Below, piece after piece: positions 51,115 through 59,583 of a stretch of DNA of 59,688 nt. This stretch comes from Leisingera sp. ANG59 (GTDB lineage: Bacteria; Pseudomonadota; Alphaproteobacteria; Rhodobacterales; Rhodobacteraceae). How positions within the stretch are numbered: position 1 is the first letter of the stretch; each line of letters begins with the position of its first letter. The translations under genes were made by a program, and so were the position numbers. The DNA is taken from contig NZ_WLCM01000025.1 of assembly GCF_013317235.1 (NCBI RefSeq), positions 397 through 60,084 of the forward strand. Reading direction: 5' to 3'. The notes under the pieces were generated by a model. It was not told where the DNA came from and ran no database searches. It saw only the letters and a list, made by a program, of their open reading frames with translations.

Positions 51115-51930
51115 ATGACCAAACCTATGATGGACCTGAGAGAGCTTGTCGAGAAGAGCGCAGATGCCGATCTTCTTCGAGATATGATCGGTTTCGCCGC
51201 CGAAAGGCTGATGGAACTGGAGGTCGGCGCAAAAACCGGCGCCGGCTATCACCAGAAGACCCCGGAGCGAAAGGCGCAGAGAAACGGCTACCGCGAACGC
51301 GACTGGCAAACGCGGGCCGGGAACGTGGAGCTGCGGATTCCGAAGCTGCGCACCGGCAGCTATTTTCCTTCTTTCCTGGAGCCGCGGCGGGCGGCTGAGA
51401 AGGCGCTGAGCGCGGTTATTCAAGAAGCTTATGTCCACGGCGTCTCAACCCGTTCCATGGACGATCTCGTGCAGGCGATGGGCGGTACCGGCATCTCGAA
51501 AAGCCAGGTTAGCCGCCTGTGCGAGGAGATCGACGAGCGGGTCGACGCCTTCCTCACCCGTCCGATCGACGGTGAATGGCCCTACCTGTGGATTGATGCG
51601 ACCTATCTCAAGGTTCGCCAGGGCGGTCGTATCGTCTCCGTTGCCGTCACCATCGCCGTCGGTGTCAATACGGACGGTCGCCGAGAGGTGCTGGGCATGT
51701 CCATCGGCCCGTCCGAGGCCGAAACCTTCTGGACGGAATTCCTGCGCGATCTGGTGCGGCGCGGGCTGTGTGGTGTGAAGCTGGTCATCAGCGATGCGCA
51801 TGAAGGCATCAAGGCCTCAGTCGCACGCGTGCTGAACACGACCTGGCAGCGTTGTCGGGTGCATTACCTCCACGCCAGGACCGATGCTTTCGACCTCTGG
51901 AATACCTATGCGACTGAAATAGCCGCCTGA
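51115..51930 (+). pseudogene. IS256-family (Mutator) transposase, 3'-truncated
   Basis: The first 255 or so codons of an IS256-type transposase (normally about 400). Recognisable parts are KTGAGYHQKTPERKAQRNGYRERDW, ELRIPKLRTGSYFPSFLEPRR, the catalytic-domain start YLWIDATYLKVRQGG, and SDAHEGIKASVARVLNTTWQRCRVHYLH. After this homology stops and the frame ends in 18 unrelated residues. The next sequence is an IS5-type fragment, so the element was cut by a later insertion or deletion. Confidence 0.88.
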
Positions 51931-52202: not shown

Positions 52203-53093
52203 CTAGGCCGGCATCCACATTACAACTTCGATGTCTCCGCGGCGCCCCCGGATCTTGACCGGCTTCGTCACATCCGGCCGGGGCAGGTCTGACGCCGTCC
52301 GGCCTGCACGCGACAGCAGGCGGGACGACGCGGTGATCGCCGCCCCATGCGCTTTTCCGACCTCCATGAGGCGGCTGGCCACATTCACGCAATCGCCGGA
52401 GGCCGAAATCTGCTGCTGCCGTTCATGACCCAGCCGCGACAGGATGATTGGGCCGCAATGCACCCCCACCCGCATTCCCTTCAGGCTTGCGCATTCCGGC
52501 GAATCCGCAATCCAGGACCGGATACGGCTTGCCAGACCGAAGCTTGCCCGCAGCGCCTGCTCCGCATCCTCCGCCCCCGGGTCCGGAATGCCAAAGCCGA
52601 TCATGGCGCCGTCGCCCATGAAATCCAGCACAACGCCGCCCAGCCGGTCGGCTTCCTCCACGACAAGCTGGTGAAATGCCTTCAGCAAGTCGCGGGTCGC
52701 GGCCGGCCCGAGGCGCTCGGACGTGCCGGTAAACCCGCCCAGATCGACGAACAGGATCGCGGCGTCCTGCGCGCGCGGCGATTTGAGAAAACCCGGATCA
52801 TCCGCAATCCGGCGGGACAGAGCCGGAGCGTGAAACAGGCCCAGGGCCTGCCGGGCCATCACCTGCAGCTTGGCCTGCCTCCGGTCGAACATCTGGCGCA
52901 CCAGCATCAGGCACAAAACCGGCGGCACCGCACCGGCGAGCGGCAGCGCCAGGCTGAACCAGTAGCCATTACCGAAGAGGAGCGCGGCCGCAGCAGCCCA
53001 CCCCGCCAGCAGGCTCAGGAAAACCGTGCTCCCCACCGCCAGCGGCAGCAGTGATACCGCCAGAACGCCGCAGGCCGCAAGAGCCAGCGTCAC
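52203..53093 (-). CDS. Class III nucleotidyl cyclase domain with membrane helices
   Basis: A 296-residue protein with about three transmembrane helices (residues 1-65) and a class III adenylate/guanylate cyclase domain. The first metal Asp is in ILFVDLGGFTGTSERLG and the second in LDFMGDGAMIGFG; the dimer-contact Asn and Arg are in GDCVNVASRLM. The position that usually holds the adenine-contacting Lys before FMGD is Asp, so nucleotide preference is uncertain. The start is GTG at 53093, overlapping the stop of the CHASE2 gene. Upstream in this frame the expected bridging residues (RRLDATVTLALAA) continue, so the two may be one frameshifted gene. Confidence 0.87.
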   Translation of the reverse strand: MTLALAACGVLAVSLLPLAVGSTVFLSLLAGWAAAAALLFGNGYWFSLALPLAGAVPPVLCLMLVRQMFDRRQAKLQVMARQALGLFHAPALSRRIADDPGFLKSPRAQDAAILFVDLGGFTGTSERLGPAATRDLLKAFHQLVVEEADRLGGVVLDFMGDGAMIGFGIPDPGAEDAEQALRASFGLASRIRSWIADSPECASLKGMRVGVHCGPIILSRLGHERQQQISASGDCVNVASRLMEVGKAHGAAITASSRLLSRAGRTASDLPRPDVTKPVKIRGRRGDIEVVMWMPA

Positions 53094-54007
53094 CGTCGCA
53101 TCCAGCCGCCGCGCACCAGTTGAGAGCCGTGCAGCAAATTGGCAATGCCGGTCGCCAGAATCTCGACGCCCGGCATGACTTGGTCAAAGGGCACGCTGAA
53201 ACGGTCGCCGACCGCCGTTGCCGTCGCCCCCAGCAGCACCAGCTGCCCGTCCAGGCCGGCCTCCGCCCCGTCCAGCAGCGACTGCGCGCTGATTGTCCTG
53301 ACGGTGCCGCGCGCCCCGTAGTAGCGCAGCGGCAAGTGCCAGGCGATGTCCATCGGCCGCACCTCGCCCGCCACCCGCGCGCCTCCCGGCACCAGCGGCA
53401 CGGCATCGCCGAGGTACAGCGAAACCGCCTGCAGGACAAAGGACGGGGCAAGGCCTTCACTTGTTTCGAACACCAATGGCAGGTGCCGCGGTGTGCCGCC
53501 TGCATCGGCCGCGATATTGGCAAGCCCCACCGAGGCGGCGGCGGCAAACTCCGGCCGCGGCCTGATTTCACCGGAGGTCTTCGGCACCGCCGGCCGGCCG
53601 GCTTCGTCCGGGCCGAACAGCCCGGCTGACGCGATCACCGCCGGAAGGCTCTCCAATGCCCGCGCCAGCTCGCCGTCAGCTTCGGTCCCGTCGGCCAGCA
53701 GCAGGTCCAGCGCCACCACCCTGGCGCCGCCCGCTGCAATCGCGCGGACCAGCTCCGCCAGCGCCCTGCGGCTGACCGGGTATCCGCCGGCCGCCGCCAC
53801 GGTGGCATCATCCAGCGCAACAACCATCACGTCCCGGGGCGCGGGACGCGGCCCGGCGATCAGCAGCCGCCAGTCGGCGAACACCGCCTCGGCCCGGTCC
53901 AGGGCGCTGGCGCGCCCCGCGATATGGTGAACCCCCAGCAGCCCGGCCCAGGCCCAGGCCGCGATCACCGCCGCCGCTGCAGCCCAAAGCGGCAGCCGCG
54001 ACTTCAT
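53090..54007 (-). CDS. CHASE2-domain membrane sensor
   Basis: A 305-residue extracytoplasmic sensor. It has an N-terminal signal anchor (LWAAAAAVIAAWAWAGLLG) and a CHASE2 domain: VMVVALDDATVAAAGGYPVSRRALAELVRAI, ARVVALDLLLADGTEADGELARAL, LPLRYYGARGTVRTISAQSLL and MPGVEILATGIANLLHGS. CHASE2 is normally fused to cyclase or kinase output domains. Here it ends with GGWMRR and a TGA that overlaps the cyclase start (GTGA). A single missing base near 53106-53114 would fuse both. Its ATG overlaps the fecR-like stop. Confidence 0.87.
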   Translation of the reverse strand: MKSRLPLWAAAAAVIAAWAWAGLLGVHHIAGRASALDRAEAVFADWRLLIAGPRPAPRDVMVVALDDATVAAAGGYPVSRRALAELVRAIAAGGARVVALDLLLADGTEADGELARALESLPAVIASAGLFGPDEAGRPAVPKTSGEIRPRPEFAAAASVGLANIAADAGGTPRHLPLVFETSEGLAPSFVLQAVSLYLGDAVPLVPGGARVAGEVRPMDIAWHLPLRYYGARGTVRTISAQSLLDGAEAGLDGQLVLLGATATAVGDRFSVPFDQVMPGVEILATGIANLLHGSQLVRGGWMRR

Positions 54008-54528
54008 CGCCCAAAGCGCATCAGGAGTGCCGAAACCTTCTCAGCGGGCCATTGCTTCACCTCCATCGGCGTTCCCGCCGACACCGTGACCCCGTCGCCC
54101 CCGCCCAGCTCCACCGGATCGCTGCCATTCAGGCGGCGCACTTCGACCAGCCCTTCAACGACGAAAACCGCCGTGCCGGCTGCAGTGACGTCCACAACGA
54201 ACAGGGTGCCGCGCGCTGAAACGATGGCGTGCGGGGTCATGATCTGAAACGGCCCCTTGCCGGGCGGCAGCGTGACCAGCACCCCCCGGCTGGTCACATC
54301 GACCGACACGGGCGGCGGCTGCAAAGCCGGCGGCCGGAACCCGGATGCGCCTGCATCCGGGGCTTCCGCCTCAATGACCAGCCCGTTCGCGCAGCTCAGA
54401 ATGACCCGCGGCGGATCGCTCGCTTCGGTTGTTTGGCAGGACCCGCCCTGCTGGCCCACAGCTGCGCTGCTCACCGCAACGGCGGCAGCCAGAGCACTGG
54501 CAAAAATCAGAAACGCTTTCCTCAACAT
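54004..54528 (-). CDS. FecR-domain periplasmic protein
   Basis: A 174-residue exported protein with a signal peptide (MLRKAFLIFASALAAAVAVSSAAVG) and a FecR-type domain (FQIMTPHAIVSARGTLFVVDVTAAGTAVFVVEGLVEVRR). It overlaps the CHASE2 gene by ATGA and is probably co-translated with it, so it may modulate that sensor in the periplasm. No sigma factor or TonB receptor is near, which separates it from iron-type FecR systems. The ATG at 54526-54528 follows GGGGGGT; the longer frame is antisense to the CRP gene. Confidence 0.85.
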   Translation of the reverse strand: MLRKAFLIFASALAAAVAVSSAAVGQQGGSCQTTEASDPPRVILSCANGLVIEAEAPDAGASGFRPPALQPPPVSVDVTSRGVLVTLPPGKGPFQIMTPHAIVSARGTLFVVDVTAAGTAVFVVEGLVEVRRLNGSDPVELGGGDGVTVSAGTPMEVKQWPAEKVSALLMRFGR

Positions 54529-54638: not shown

Positions 54639-54660
54639 CCAAACGCGGATTGTGACGACC

Positions 54661-55353
54661 ATGACGGAGGAAAGCCTCGCCGCCAAAGCTGCGCTGCTGG
54701 CACAAAGCGCCCTGTTTTCCGGGCTCGACAGGACGGTGCTGCACGGCCTGGCCGCCCGCGCGCATCTGCGCCGGCATGAGGCCGGCGCGCAGATCTTCCG
54801 CTGCGGCTCGCCAGGCGACAGCATGATGGCGATCGCCCGCGGCACCGTACGGATCAGCGCGATGGCGCCCACCGCGCGCGATGTCGTCCTGACCGATCTC
54901 AACCAGGGCGACGTCTTCGGCGAAATCGCCCTGCTGGACGGCGGCGGGCGCAGCGCAGACGCGCATGCCCTGACCAATTGCACGCTGCTCATTCTCGAAC
55001 GGCACGCCTTTCTGCAAGTCCTGCAGACCGCTCCGGACCTGGCCGTCAGGCTGATCGAACTGCTGTGCGCGCGGATGCGCCGCTCGGACGAACGGATGAT
55101 GGAAATCGCCTTTCTCCAGCTGCCGCCCCGGCTGGCCCGGACCCTGCTGCGCCTAGCGTCCGGCGGCGGCGCCAGGCCGGCAAAACGGCTGGCCCAGTCG
55201 CAATCCGAGATCGCAGACATGATCGGCGGATCGCGGGAGAACGTGAACCGCTGCCTGCGCAAATGGCAGAAGGCGGGATTGATCGGCCTGGCTGACGGCT
55301 GGATCATCCTTTTGGACCCGGCCGGGCTGGCAAGAATTGCCGCGGCGGGCTGA
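54661..55353 (+). CDS. CRP/FNR-family transcription factor (cAMP receptor type)
   Basis: A 230-residue CRP-family regulator. The cyclic-nucleotide pocket is well kept: GDVFGEIALLDGGGRSADA has the Glu and Arg-Ser that bind cAMP ribose and phosphate in E. coli CRP. The recognition helix, IADMIGGSRENVNRCL, keeps the Arg-Glu and final Arg that read TGTGA in E. coli CRP. No FNR-type Cys cluster is present. It is divergent from the fecR-CHASE2-cyclase operon and 25 bp upstream of a perfect CRP palindrome. ATG at 54661 is used; a GTG at 54652 is possible. Confidence 0.88.
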   Translation: MTEESLAAKAALLAQSALFSGLDRTVLHGLAARAHLRRHEAGAQIFRCGSPGDSMMAIARGTVRISAMAPTARDVVLTDLNQGDVFGEIALLDGGGRSADAHALTNCTLLILERHAFLQVLQTAPDLAVRLIELLCARMRRSDERMMEIAFLQLPPRLARTLLRLASGGGARPAKRLAQSQSEIADMIGGSRENVNRCLRKWQKAGLIGLADGWIILLDPAGLARIAAAG

Positions 55354-55377: not shown

Positions 55378-55395
55378 CTGTGACGCGCGTCACAG
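55378..55395 (+). promoter_or_regulatory. Perfect CRP-consensus palindrome upstream of the LysM gene
   Basis: CTGTGACGCGCGTCACAG is an 18-bp perfect palindrome containing the exact E. coli CRP pattern TGTGA-N6-TCACA. It lies between the CRP-like gene and the LysM-protein gene. A -10-like TAGACT at 55416-55421 would put the start site near 55428, with the CRP site centred at about -41.5, the class II activator position. The TSS is predicted, not known. Confidence 0.75.
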
Positions 55396-55481
55396 GCCCG
55401 CGGCCGCCAAGGGGCTAGACTGCGGACCCGGCGGCCTCCTGTACCGCAGAGCGGTCAGCCGCCGGCGGAAGGAGCCCGGTC

Positions 55482-56828
55482 ATGTGGATTCAGCACAAAG
55501 TCAAGGAAGGCGAAACGCTCGAGGATATTGCAAAGAAGTACAAGGTCAAGGACCTGAAAGTCCTCCTCCAGCACCCCAAGAACAAACCCGCGGCGGCGGC
55601 ATACCGGAAAAAGCAGCCGCTCAAGAAAGGCATGGTCGTGCATACGCCGGACCCAAAGGCGAAATGCTACATCATCAAGGTTGGCAACAAGCAGTACCCG
55701 CTGTCCGAAAAGGAATGGAAGCAGTCCATGGCGGCGCTGAACAGGGCCATGGACCTGAGCCTGAAGCGGATGAAACGGGAGCTGGACAGCGCCAAATACC
55801 GGCACAAAATGCAAAATGATCTGGACGACGATCATTTTATCATCTCGTTACTGATCCGGTCCGGCGACGGCCCGGTGGCATTGCGGGCCTTGGCGGAGGG
55901 CGCTGTCGCCAGTCTGGAAAAGACCGTCAAAAGGCGTGATTACAAGAACTTCGAGTTCAGCATGAAGTTCGCTGAGAAACAGATCAATATGTACCGCAAG
56001 GGACTCGGCAACTGGCTCAATGATGTGGTCGGATCAGCGGAAGGCTGGGCCACAGCTCTCACCATCGTACGCGAAGGCAGTTTCTTTGTTTTTGGCGTTG
56101 TGGCTATGACTATCGCCGCTCCCGCTTCAGGTGTTGCCGCGGTTGCCTGGGGCACTGGCATCGGTGCCGGAACAGCCGTCATCGCAGAGAGCGCAAACCA
56201 GATCGGCAAGGTCGCCGCCGGCGACAAGGTGACCAACAAGAGCTCAGCTAAGGCCACCGCCAAGGCCATGCTCCGGGGCGGGATCTCTGGCGGGGCTGGG
56301 GCCGCTGTGGCGAGCTTTATAGGCAAATATGTCGCTCCGAAACTGTCGGAATACATTCTCCGAAATCCAGCCGCATCAAGATTGGCGCAAAGGCTGGTTT
56401 CGAAACCCATCTTTTTCAAAGAATGGGGCAACGAAATCTACAAACACATCATAGAGCAGGAGATCAAGGCGCTTGGCGGAAATGCCGTGAGGCTATTCTC
56501 CAGGAAGACTTTTCAAGAGATGGCCAGTAGAGTCCTAGCCAAGCTTTTCGTGCGGTCTGGCGTCAGCGGAACCAGTAAAATCCTCCAGAAGATCCTGCTT
56601 TCCGACAGCAGCGGCAAACCGGTCCACAAGTACCTCGAACAGAACGCCACGACAACCAAAGGCAAGATGGATGAAGGCAAGCTCGCAGGCCGCATTGCCA
56701 AGCTGCTGGAGCGCGATCCGGTCACCGACCTGGCCTTCGAGGCCTTCTGCAGGAGCAACGTGAAGAAGATCGAGGTCGAACTGCACGCCGAGGTCAGGAA
56801 GGGGCTGAAGGCCAAGACCTGGGAATAA
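55482..56828 (+). CDS. LysM-like protein with hydrophobic glycine-rich core
   Basis: A 448-residue protein I cannot place in a family. Residues 1-50 look like a LysM domain (WIQHKVKEGETLEDIAKKY, then KPLKKGMVVHTP-like spacing). Next is a charged helical region (about 70-170), then a hydrophobic glycine- and alanine-rich stretch (about 190-240: FFVFGVVAMTIAAPASGVAAVAWGTGIGAGTAVIA) and a second one near 260-285. The C-terminus is basic. It has no signal peptide. The ribosome site is GGAAGGAG and the promoter region carries a CRP palindrome. It could be an effector, toxin or envelope protein; no function is claimed. Confidence 0.8.
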   Translation: MWIQHKVKEGETLEDIAKKYKVKDLKVLLQHPKNKPAAAAYRKKQPLKKGMVVHTPDPKAKCYIIKVGNKQYPLSEKEWKQSMAALNRAMDLSLKRMKRELDSAKYRHKMQNDLDDDHFIISLLIRSGDGPVALRALAEGAVASLEKTVKRRDYKNFEFSMKFAEKQINMYRKGLGNWLNDVVGSAEGWATALTIVREGSFFVFGVVAMTIAAPASGVAAVAWGTGIGAGTAVIAESANQIGKVAAGDKVTNKSSAKATAKAMLRGGISGGAGAAVASFIGKYVAPKLSEYILRNPAASRLAQRLVSKPIFFKEWGNEIYKHIIEQEIKALGGNAVRLFSRKTFQEMASRVLAKLFVRSGVSGTSKILQKILLSDSSGKPVHKYLEQNATTTKGKMDEGKLAGRIAKLLERDPVTDLAFEAFCRSNVKKIEVELHAEVRKGLKAKTWE

Positions 56829-57676: not shown

Positions 57677-59479
57677 TCAGTCCGCCGGGTTCTGAACGGT
57701 CCCCGGCAGGATAACCGGGCCGGGCCTCTGACCGCTCAGGCTCGCCTGCACGGCCTCCCGCAAGGCCTCGCTGCGGTCCAGCAGCTTGCGGAACTCCGTC
57801 TCGCGCAGTTCCAGCAGCACAGACGGGACGATGGCGCGGGCCTGCGCCTGGGCCAGGCGGGCACCGGGGGTCAGCAGCTCGGCATGGCCGAACATGTCGC
57901 CCCGCCCCAGCCGGGTCACCCGGCCCGCCCGCCTGAGCTCCAGCGCGCCGGAGGCGATGAAATGGACGCTCCCGCCGTCGGCGCCCTGGCCTGGCAGCTG
58001 GCCGCCCGCATTGACATGGACGGTCTTCAGGCTGCGCAGCAGCTGCCGGCGGCTGCGCCGGTCCAGCGCTTCGAAAAAGGGAAGCCTGCGGATTAGCTCA
58101 GCGCGCTGAACCGCCACATCCAGCCGCGGACGGCTGTCCAGCTGCGCCCGGCGGGCAAGCAGGTCCTGCAGCAGGACCGTCAGCACTTCGGTGCCGATCA
58201 GCCCGTCTTCATGCAGGGTCCGGTACTCGCGCTCCTCAAACCGCAGCGCCGCGCGCCGGATGAACAGACGCTCCAGCTCTTCGGCATAGCCGGGATACTG
58301 CAGCCGCAGCCCCTCCAGGGCCGCCTCCAGCGCTTCCGACCGCCGGGCCAGCATCCCGTGCAGCAGCTGGGCCACGCGTTTGCCGTGGATCCGGCGGATG
58401 CGGCTGTCGACAAAGGCATCGAGGTCGCCAAGAATGACCCGCTGCGCCAGCATGTATTCAAACCGGTCCGCCGTCAGCCTGCCCAGCAGCACCGGCACCC
58501 GCAGGCGGTTGTGCAGCGCCAGCGCCAGGCGGAAGCCGCGGCCATAGGCCAGCATGCCCCGCGCCCGCCTGCGGTAGCCGGAGCGGCCCTGGGTCCGGAC
58601 GGCTTCGATCAGCCGGTCGGCGCCGGTGATCAGCTGCTCCGTCACGCGGGCGGAAATCAGCCCCAGCTTGACCCGGTCCTTGTCCGGAATGCCGGTGGTT
58701 TCATCCGCCTCCCGCACCGCCTCGTCTAGCCAAATGCCGAACTGCTTGGCCTCGTCGCGCACGGTTTCATGGCTCAGCCGGTAGCTTTGTGTGACGCCAG
58801 CCACTTCTTCGCGCACGGTCTGCAGAGCGACCGCAACCGCCTGCTGCGACAGCGCCGCATCAAAGGTGGAAAGCCGGCCCAGCCCGAGCCGGCCAACCAC
58901 CCAGCGCAGGGTCGTACCCTGAACCAGCAGGGTGAACAGGACGAAGCCGGTGGCGAGAAAGCCAACAAGGCGCTTGGTCTCATGCGGGATCAGCGCGTTT
59001 TCGGTCACCGCAAGCGCCAGTGCCAGTGTCAGCGCCCCCCGCAGGCCGCCCCACAGGATGGCTGCGCGGTAGCAGCGGTCGATGGCAGGCGACAGCCGCG
59101 ACCAGTTCAGCACCGGCATCAGCACAAACAGGATCAGCGCGCGGGCCGCGACGGCGGCCGCGATCACCACTAGGATCAGGCCGAAATTCGCCAGCCGGAT
59201 TTCCTGCAGCAGGCGCGGGATGAACAGTGCCGCCAGCACAAAGATCATTGCCCCGCCCAATGCGCCAGCAGGTCCCAGCGCTCGCACAGCTTGGTCCAGG
59301 CCTGCGGCGTCAGCCGCCCAGGCGCCACCAGATGCAGCGAAAGCCCCGCCGCCGCCACCGCAATGACCCCAGAGGCGCCCACCACCTGCTCGGCAATGAC
59401 ATAGGCCAGATAGGGCAAGGTGACCGAAACCGACAGTTGCTGTAACCGCCGGACGTAATCTCCCTGTGTGGTTGCCGCC
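57677..59479 (-). pseudogene. CPA1 Na+/H+ antiporter with cyclic-nucleotide-binding domain, 5'-truncated and frameshifted
   Basis: The 3' part of a large cation:proton antiporter. Membrane helices include AMIFVLAALFIPRLLQEIRL and ILWGGLRGALTLALALAVTENALI. A long cytoplasmic helical region follows, then a C-terminal cyclic-nucleotide-binding-like domain (VHFIASGALELRRAGRVTRLGRGDMFGHAELL). Between about 59257 and 59475 the correct protein (SVSVTLPYLAYVIAEQVVGASG, up to LLAHWAG) is in another frame. One base missing in the G run at 59251-59257 explains it. The first helices are lost past 59479, so the gene is dead. Confidence 0.85.
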
Positions 59480-59583
59480 CATTATGCAAGAGCCTTTGTC
59501 ACCTTGTTGGGAATGATCGAGTGCGGTCTTGTGTCAGGCCTCGAAGGTGCGACCATTCCACTGGCCGCGGGCCGGTATGGTGA
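59480..59583. other. Junction sequence, nothing recognised
   Basis: About 100 bp between the broken antiporter and the next gene piece. Homology to both neighbours stops here, as expected of a deletion or recombination junction. No terminal repeat was identified. Confidence 0.35.

What the first reader, a model, noticed from the sequence alone, without database searches (positions are those of the whole stretch)
55378..55395. Perfect CRP-site palindrome closes a local cAMP circuit onto an unknown LysM protein gene
The sequence CTGTGACGCGCGTCACAG is a perfect 18-bp palindrome with the exact E. coli CRP pattern. The gene on one side encodes a CRP protein that keeps the cAMP contacts (GEIALL...GGRSA) and the DNA-reading Arg-Glu...Arg (SRENVNR). 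A CHASE2/cyclase operon is divergent from that gene. On the other side, 87 bp away, starts a 448-residue LysM-like protein of no recognised family, with a -10-like TAGACT placing the site at about -41.5. Sensor, cyclase, receptor, operator and target are thus contiguous. Family knowledge gives the parts; the circuit is inferred.
Basis: partly seen in the sequence, partly recalled or inferred. Interest (0 to 1): 0.85.

Follow-up and report, generated by a model that had tools for sequence, protein, structure and literature searches.

The report
CRP-controlled promoter with swappable target gene
A bacterial switch protein, the enzyme thought to make its chemical signal, and a matching DNA switch sit side by side; related bacteria keep the switch but attach it to different genes, so it looks like a reusable expression slot built on a plan already known from a plant symbiont.

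Summary
The palindrome is real (55378-55395; Leisingera) and is the window's only exact TGTGAN6TCACA (0.01 expected). Comparison shows a class II CRP-type promoter just behind the crp gene. In 33 distinct non-Leisingera loci carrying this CRP, 18 have an identified downstream target; all 18 show a site (11-15 of 15 matches), and 16 of 18 have TAnnn[TA] exactly 21-22 nt beyond it (window 21). The target differs: BA14K-like (15), RTX (2), cytochrome b561 (1); LysM only in Leisingera. None of the other 15 loci shows site plus correctly spaced -10. So the promoter is conserved and its cargo swapped. FecR, CHASE2-cyclase and CRP stay together in 16 of 17 loci. The plan is that of the Sinorhizobium meliloti clr/cyaD1/smc02177/smc02178 locus, with another operator and spacing.

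Corrections: the window's CHASE2-cyclase gene carries a 13-bp frameshifting deletion absent from three other Leisingera genomes. 'cAMP' is unproven: Asp replaces the Lys of adenylate cyclases, and Ser-Asp occupies the CRP's purine contacts. The genome has 19 cyclase-domain matches, so the messenger need not be private. Binding and transcription are untested.

The parts
55378..55395 (.). Operator: perfect palindrome CTGTGACGCGCGTCACAG, CRP-type
   Evidence: matching sites in 18 of 33 non-Leisingera loci
55416..55421 (+). -10-like element TAGACT, 21 nt after the 16-bp site core
   Evidence: TAnnn[TA] at offset 22 in 15 and 21 in 1 of 18 related promoters
55422..55481 (+). Inferred start region and 5' leader of the LysM transcript; GC-rich hairpin possible but not better than shuffles in the window
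   Evidence: z -0.61 for 55428-55490
54652..55353 (+). CRP-type regulator (annotated start in relatives matches ATG at 54661): cNMP-binding and HTH_Crp_2 domains, SRENVNR recognition motif
55482..56828 (+). Target in Leisingera: 448-aa protein, N-terminal LysM-like, rest helical/hydrophobic, function unknown
54004..54528 (-). FecR-domain protein, first gene of the divergent set (start at ATG 54528 read)
   Evidence: (PF04773 for 54004-54522), annotation of the same 525-bp gene
53090..54007 (-). CHASE2 part of the sensor-cyclase gene, cut short by the frameshift
52203..53093 (-). Transmembrane plus class III cyclase part, now in another frame; metal Asp and Asn/Arg kept, Lys to Asp at the purine-specifying place
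53100..53110 (-). Place of a 13-bp deletion (between short GGCGGC repeats) relative to three other Leisingera genomes

Best explanation
The palindrome is the activator site of a class II CRP-type promoter. A membrane sensor (FecR protein plus CHASE2-cyclase) is thought to control a cyclic nucleotide; the neighbouring CRP binds it, sits at the palindrome centred near -41.5, and recruits RNA polymerase to the gene just behind it. That gene is a LysM protein in Leisingera, but a BA14K-like, RTX or cytochrome b561 protein in other genera: the regulator-sensor cassette keeps one promoter slot whose cargo changes. Shown by sequence: site, fixed spacing, co-occurrence with a target, conservation of the cassette. 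Inferred: binding, activation, ligand, signal. In this particular genome the sensor-cyclase gene is frameshifted, so the local input may be impaired.
For: Site unique in the window and, in its GCGC form, in the genome. Of 33 distinct non-Leisingera loci (30 plus L077, L081, L083), 15 have a BA14K-like gene behind crp and all 15 have a site of at least 12 of 15 matches; of the other 18, 3 do (L128, L142, L081) (Fisher 1.0e-6). With the stricter test (site at least 11 and TAnnn[TA] at 21/22) it is 13 of 15 against 3 of 18 (8.6e-5; L116 and L117 have TTACGTG there instead); those 3 are L128, L142, L143, which carry cytochrome b561 and RTX genes. TAnnn[TA] in the 44 nt after the site falls at offset 22 in 15, 21 in 1 and elsewhere only once over 18 promoters. 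GTG and TCACA of the site are invariant in the window plus 17 loci (sites chosen by best match, so partly by construction; the -10 spacing was not used in choosing). 0 of 25 paralogous CRP genes have a site of 12 or more downstream. RENVNR, RRSDERM and GEIA...RSA are invariant in 19 of 19 CRPs. A second such site with the same -10 spacing precedes a cytochrome b561 gene beyond the cyclase in L071, L072, L073, L076, L079.
Against: No binding or transcription data. The p-values treat related loci as independent. Random 480-bp stretches of the same loci reach 12 of 15 in 263 of 5400 draws (true sites not excluded), and sites of 11-12 without the -10 occur in L127, L145 and L081, so site score alone is weak. 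The five Leisingera copies are too alike to test the LysM link by themselves. The window's cyclase is frameshifted and 18 other cyclase-domain matches exist in the genome. A standard sigma-70 scan finds no + strand promoter here, which fits an activator-dependent promoter but is not evidence for one.
Confidence: 0.8

Rival explanations
1. The site mainly serves the crp gene (read-through control, terminator, or autoregulation) and its position before LysM is incidental.
For: It lies 24 nt after the crp stop; Leisingera's 36%-identical paralogous CRP gene also has a conserved palindrome 38-54 nt after its stop, in front of no co-directed gene that I found.
Against: Loci that keep this CRP but lack an identified target lack the site plus -10 (15 of 15); distance to the crp stop varies from 39 to 241 nt in relatives while distance to the -10 is fixed; no T-tract terminator there.
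Confidence: 0.07
2. The palindrome is bound by another CRP/FNR protein of the cell, or represses rather than activates.
For: The genome encodes 6 CRP-family matches; TGTGAN6TCACA is a general CRP site (CgrA binds it too, PMC4681086 passages).
Against: The GCGC-centred site has no second copy within one mismatch in the genome and goes with this CRP subfamily across genera; the -41.5 spacing is the activator position of class II promoters (general knowledge).
Confidence: 0.1
3. Chance palindrome in GC-rich DNA.
For: The genome has 4 exact CRP consensus places against 2 for the reversed control; four-base repeats such as GCGC are common in such DNA.
Against: Fixed -10 spacing in 16 of 18 related promoters and co-occurrence with a target gene.
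Confidence: 0.02

Closest known systems
Sinorhizobium meliloti cyaD1 locus: clr, cyaD1 (CHASE2 cyclase), smc02177 (FecR), smc02178 (Clr target) (PMC4222275, PMC5498481, PMC13001267, passages seen)
   Same: CRP-type regulator, CHASE2 cyclase, FecR protein and a regulated gene of unknown function at one locus; the target has the operator in its promoter; the palindrome here also fits the core Clr motif GTNNCNNNNGNNAC (my reading).
   Different: Clr box is TGTTCCGCGGGAAACA with the start 61.5 bp away (class I); here TGTG...CACA near -41.5 (class II). Clr lacks the Glu of CAP's recognition helix (PMC10127613 passages); this CRP has SRENVNR. Target proteins differ.
Rhodospirillum centenum CgrA with gcyB-gcyC (PMC4681086, passages seen)
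   Same: CRP-type regulator encoded with cyclase genes, operator TGTGA-N6-TCACA at the locus.
   Different: CgrA answers cGMP and controls its own operon and a wide cyst regulon; here one exact-type site in the genome and a cargo gene downstream.
Escherichia coli CRP (CAP) class II promoters
   Same: Site sequence, Arg-Glu...Arg contacts, -41.5 position.
   Different: Local cassette rather than global regulator; Ser-Asp instead of Thr-Ser at the purine contacts; Asp-type cyclase of class III.

Membership tests
CRP (CAP)-type operator and class II promoter | TGTGAN6TCACA site | tested here: met
   exact match
CRP (CAP)-type operator and class II promoter | Site centred near -41.5 with a -10 element | tested here: met
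   by sequence only; start site not mapped
CRP (CAP)-type operator and class II promoter | cNMP-bound CRP binds and activates | not testable with these tools
   needs gel shift and reporter
CAP-type regulator | cNMP-binding domain plus HTH_Crp with Arg-Glu...Arg | tested here: met
   PF00027 69.5 bits, PF13545 61.9 bits; SRENVNR
CAP-type regulator (E. coli CRP equivalog) | NCBIfam equivalog score for CRP | tested here: not met
   NF008732 97.1 bits against cut-off 266
CAP-type regulator | Thr-Ser (CAP) or Thr-Thr (Clr) purine contacts on the dimer helix | tested here: not met
   Ser-Asp by alignment to Clr; RRSDERM invariant in 19 of 19
S. meliloti clr/cyaD1-type locus | CRP gene beside CHASE2-cyclase and FecR genes | tested here: met
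   window; 16 of 17 non-Leisingera loci with wide flanks, L074 lacks them
S. meliloti clr/cyaD1-type locus | Adjacent target with operator | tested here: met
   by sequence
S. meliloti clr/cyaD1-type locus | Clr box HGTYHCNNNNGRWACA | tested here: not met
   fourth base is G, not Y; the shorter core GTNNCNNNNGNNAC fits (read; consensus)
S. meliloti clr/cyaD1-type locus | Regulator orthologous to Clr (cluster G) | tested here: inconclusive
   Clr (7pza) 110.7 bits, actinobacterial CRPs 111 bits; no tree built
Class III adenylate cyclase | Lys and Asp purine-specifying residues | tested here: not met
   Asp for Lys in the window and 14 of 15 aligned non-Leisingera cyclases, Asn in L066; Ser/Thr for Asp, which is common also in other cyclases of the genome
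LysM domain (PF01476) | Score over the Pfam cut-off | tested here: not met
   20.0 against 20.9 bits; NCBI names relatives LysM domain-containing

The most novel reading that the evidence does not exclude
The FecR/CHASE2-cyclase/CRP cassette is a transferable signalling unit with a fixed, cNMP-controlled expression slot behind the crp gene into which unrelated genes (BA14K-like, RTX, cytochrome b561, LysM) have been placed, and its messenger is cGMP or otherwise not plain cAMP, because the cyclase has an acidic residue at the purine-specifying place and the CRP an Asp at the matching contact.
Probability: 0.25. Interest if true: 0.65.

Novelty: new variant of a known kind. Interest (0 to 1): 0.47.

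Why it matters
It gives a natural series in which regulator, sensor and promoter stay fixed while the target gene changes, so what a CHASE2-cyclase/CRP unit is for could be asked across several targets. It also makes two questions testable: which cyclic nucleotide such units use, and whether a small local regulator needs its own cyclase when the genome has many.

Tried and rejected
Chance origin: rejected by spacing and co-occurrence. Terminator: no T-tract stem on the + strand. LysM protein as part of a secretion or injection cluster: gene neighbourhoods of four homologues were read by eye as unrelated genes; not searched with profiles. Structure of the LysM protein: AlphaFold2 gave mean pLDDT 49.7, with residues 179-448 under 50; the structure comparison gave only common helical arrangements for residues 70-184, so nothing is concluded about fold. 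5'-leader hairpin: better than shuffles in L067 and L080 (z -4.4, -3.6), weaker in L068 and L083, not in the window or L066 (z -0.6, -0.7); the consensus has 5 pairs, one with a compensatory change; not used as evidence. A first Fisher table was typed before the L142 and L128 genes were identified; it is superseded. Wider distribution: 1 of 385 genomes of the class and 1 of 390 of the order (own genome in both) at strict E-values (only up to 7 candidates per genome scored), 28 of 87 genomes of the family of a Roseibium, 4 of 21 genomes of the genus at 99-100%. Hits L082, L084, L085 (37, 21, 25% identity) were dropped as not orthologous. Literature: searches showed in their listings no paper on this operator in Roseibium, Labrenzia or Leisingera; 'not in print' is limited to those searches of an open-licence library.

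Full report
Observation. The 18-bp palindrome is present as described and is the only exact TGTGAN6TCACA in the window. Exact CRP consensus sites occur four times in the own genome against two for the reversed control, but the GCGC-centred form has no second place within one mismatch.

Context. Upstream is a CRP-type regulator. Divergent from it lie a FecR protein, a CHASE2 part and a class III cyclase part; downstream is the LysM-like gene. The same order is annotated on L. thetidis plasmid pBMJM1_6, with repABC nearby, and on an L. caerulea S216 plasmid. The regulator at 99-100% identity is in 4 of 21 genomes of the genus. The palindrome is in all five distinct Leisingera loci seen (17 overlapping fetched loci).

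Relatives. A scan found 17 non-Leisingera loci with a CRP of about 55-61% identity in Pannonibacter, Roseibium/Labrenzia, Rhizobium and related bins; 16 of 17 keep FecR, CHASE2 and cyclase divergent from crp, L074 does not. A family search added loci to a total of 33 distinct ones (duplicates marked). BA14K-like genes were called with a profile built from seven of these loci; three of them were checked against Pfam and all three match PF07886.

Promoter slot. All 15 loci with a BA14K-like gene have a site of at least 12 of 15 matches behind crp. Three more loci have a site with the right -10: L142 and L143 with an RTX protein (PF00353) and L128 with a cytochrome b561 (PF01292). The remaining 15 have no site with a correctly placed -10, though L081 (12), L127 and L145 (11) have partial sites; L145 has only 756 nt of downstream sequence. 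In the 18 promoters TAnnn[TA] sits at offset 22 in 15 and 21 in one; L116 and L117 have TTACGTG there. The window has offset 21. GTG and TCACA of the site are invariant in the window and 17 loci. Fisher tests are; the loci are related, so the p-values are too small. As controls, 0 of 25 paralogous CRP loci reach 12 of 15, and 479,753 other positions of 15 loci gave 9 site-plus-spacing hits. Five of these nine lie before a cytochrome b561 gene past the cyclase (L071, L072, L073, L076, L079; Pfam-checked in L071 and L072, the others read from the sequence), one lies downstream of the BA14K-like gene in L072, and three are unassigned. So the operator also marks a second local target.

Regulator. 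SRENVNR, RRSDERM and GEIA...RSA are invariant in 19 of 19 CRPs. The three CAP contacts Arg-Glu...Arg are present, and Clr's lack of the Glu goes with its TGTT box (PMC10127613, PMC4222275, passages). The purine contacts read Ser-Asp instead of Thr-Thr in Clr.

Cyclase. Metal and transition-state residues are kept, but the Lys that specifies adenine is Asp in the window and 14 of 15 aligned non-Leisingera cyclases, Asn in L066 (L067 was not read); 6 of 7 other cyclases of the genome aligned here have Lys, one Arg (8 of the 19 matches had loci). Guanylate cyclases have Glu there and small residues at the second place (PMC4215837, passages). The messenger is therefore open. In the window a 13-bp deletion separates CHASE2 from the membrane/cyclase part; G004, G014 and G019 have one 605-codon frame, and L. 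caerulea is annotated with an 1818-bp gene.

Target. The LysM-like protein has an 81%-identical copy in the other Leisingera (its last two thirds vary most) and distant relatives with a LysM-like or PG_binding_1 start and a shared helical, hydrophobic remainder. No fold could be assigned. I propose an envelope-associated role, by inference only.

Mechanism. Sensor input changes a cyclic nucleotide, the CRP binds the palindrome near -41.5 and activates the gene behind it. Steps after the sequence evidence are inferred.

Comparison. The layout is that of the S. meliloti cyaD1 locus (PMC4222275, PMC5498481, passages). It differs in operator type, spacing and target; it resembles CgrA's locus in operator sequence (PMC4681086, passages). 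I file it as a new variant of a known kind.

Noticed in passing
window 53090-53110: 13-bp deletion splits the CHASE2-cyclase gene into two overlapping frames in this genome only among four Leisingera compared.
   Followed up: yes
window 57677-59482: Antiporter-like protein with a C-terminal cNMP-binding domain (PF00999 partial, PF00027); the frame's upstream part looks replaced by transposase-like sequence (IS110 is my recall).
   Followed up: partly
L111 (G000:C76) and L011, L014-L017, L019-L022: The 36%-identical chromosomal CRP paralogue has a conserved palindrome CTGTAATCCCGGTCACAG 38-54 nt after its stop in 9 of 25 control loci (2 more with variants, L024, L025) and in L111, in a region facing a DegP-like gene.
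   Followed up: partly
L072 4611, L071 4664, L073 2729, L076 4679, L079 4679; L089: Second operator with the same -10 spacing before a cytochrome b561 gene past the cyclase; L089 (genome of L080) has a site before a b561 gene too.
   Followed up: yes
L073 3636-5378 and 5526-7343: Two CHASE2-cyclase copies in tandem in one Roseibium locus.
   Followed up: no
L067 6425-7365: CHASE2 region of Roseibium aggregatum PHM038 is also in two frames.
   Followed up: no
upstream of crp in L068, L080, L083 and others: Recurrent GTTGTA-like repeats between FecR and crp.
   Followed up: no
window 51115-51930: Cut-short Mutator-type transposase (PF00872) next to the cyclase.
   Followed up: no
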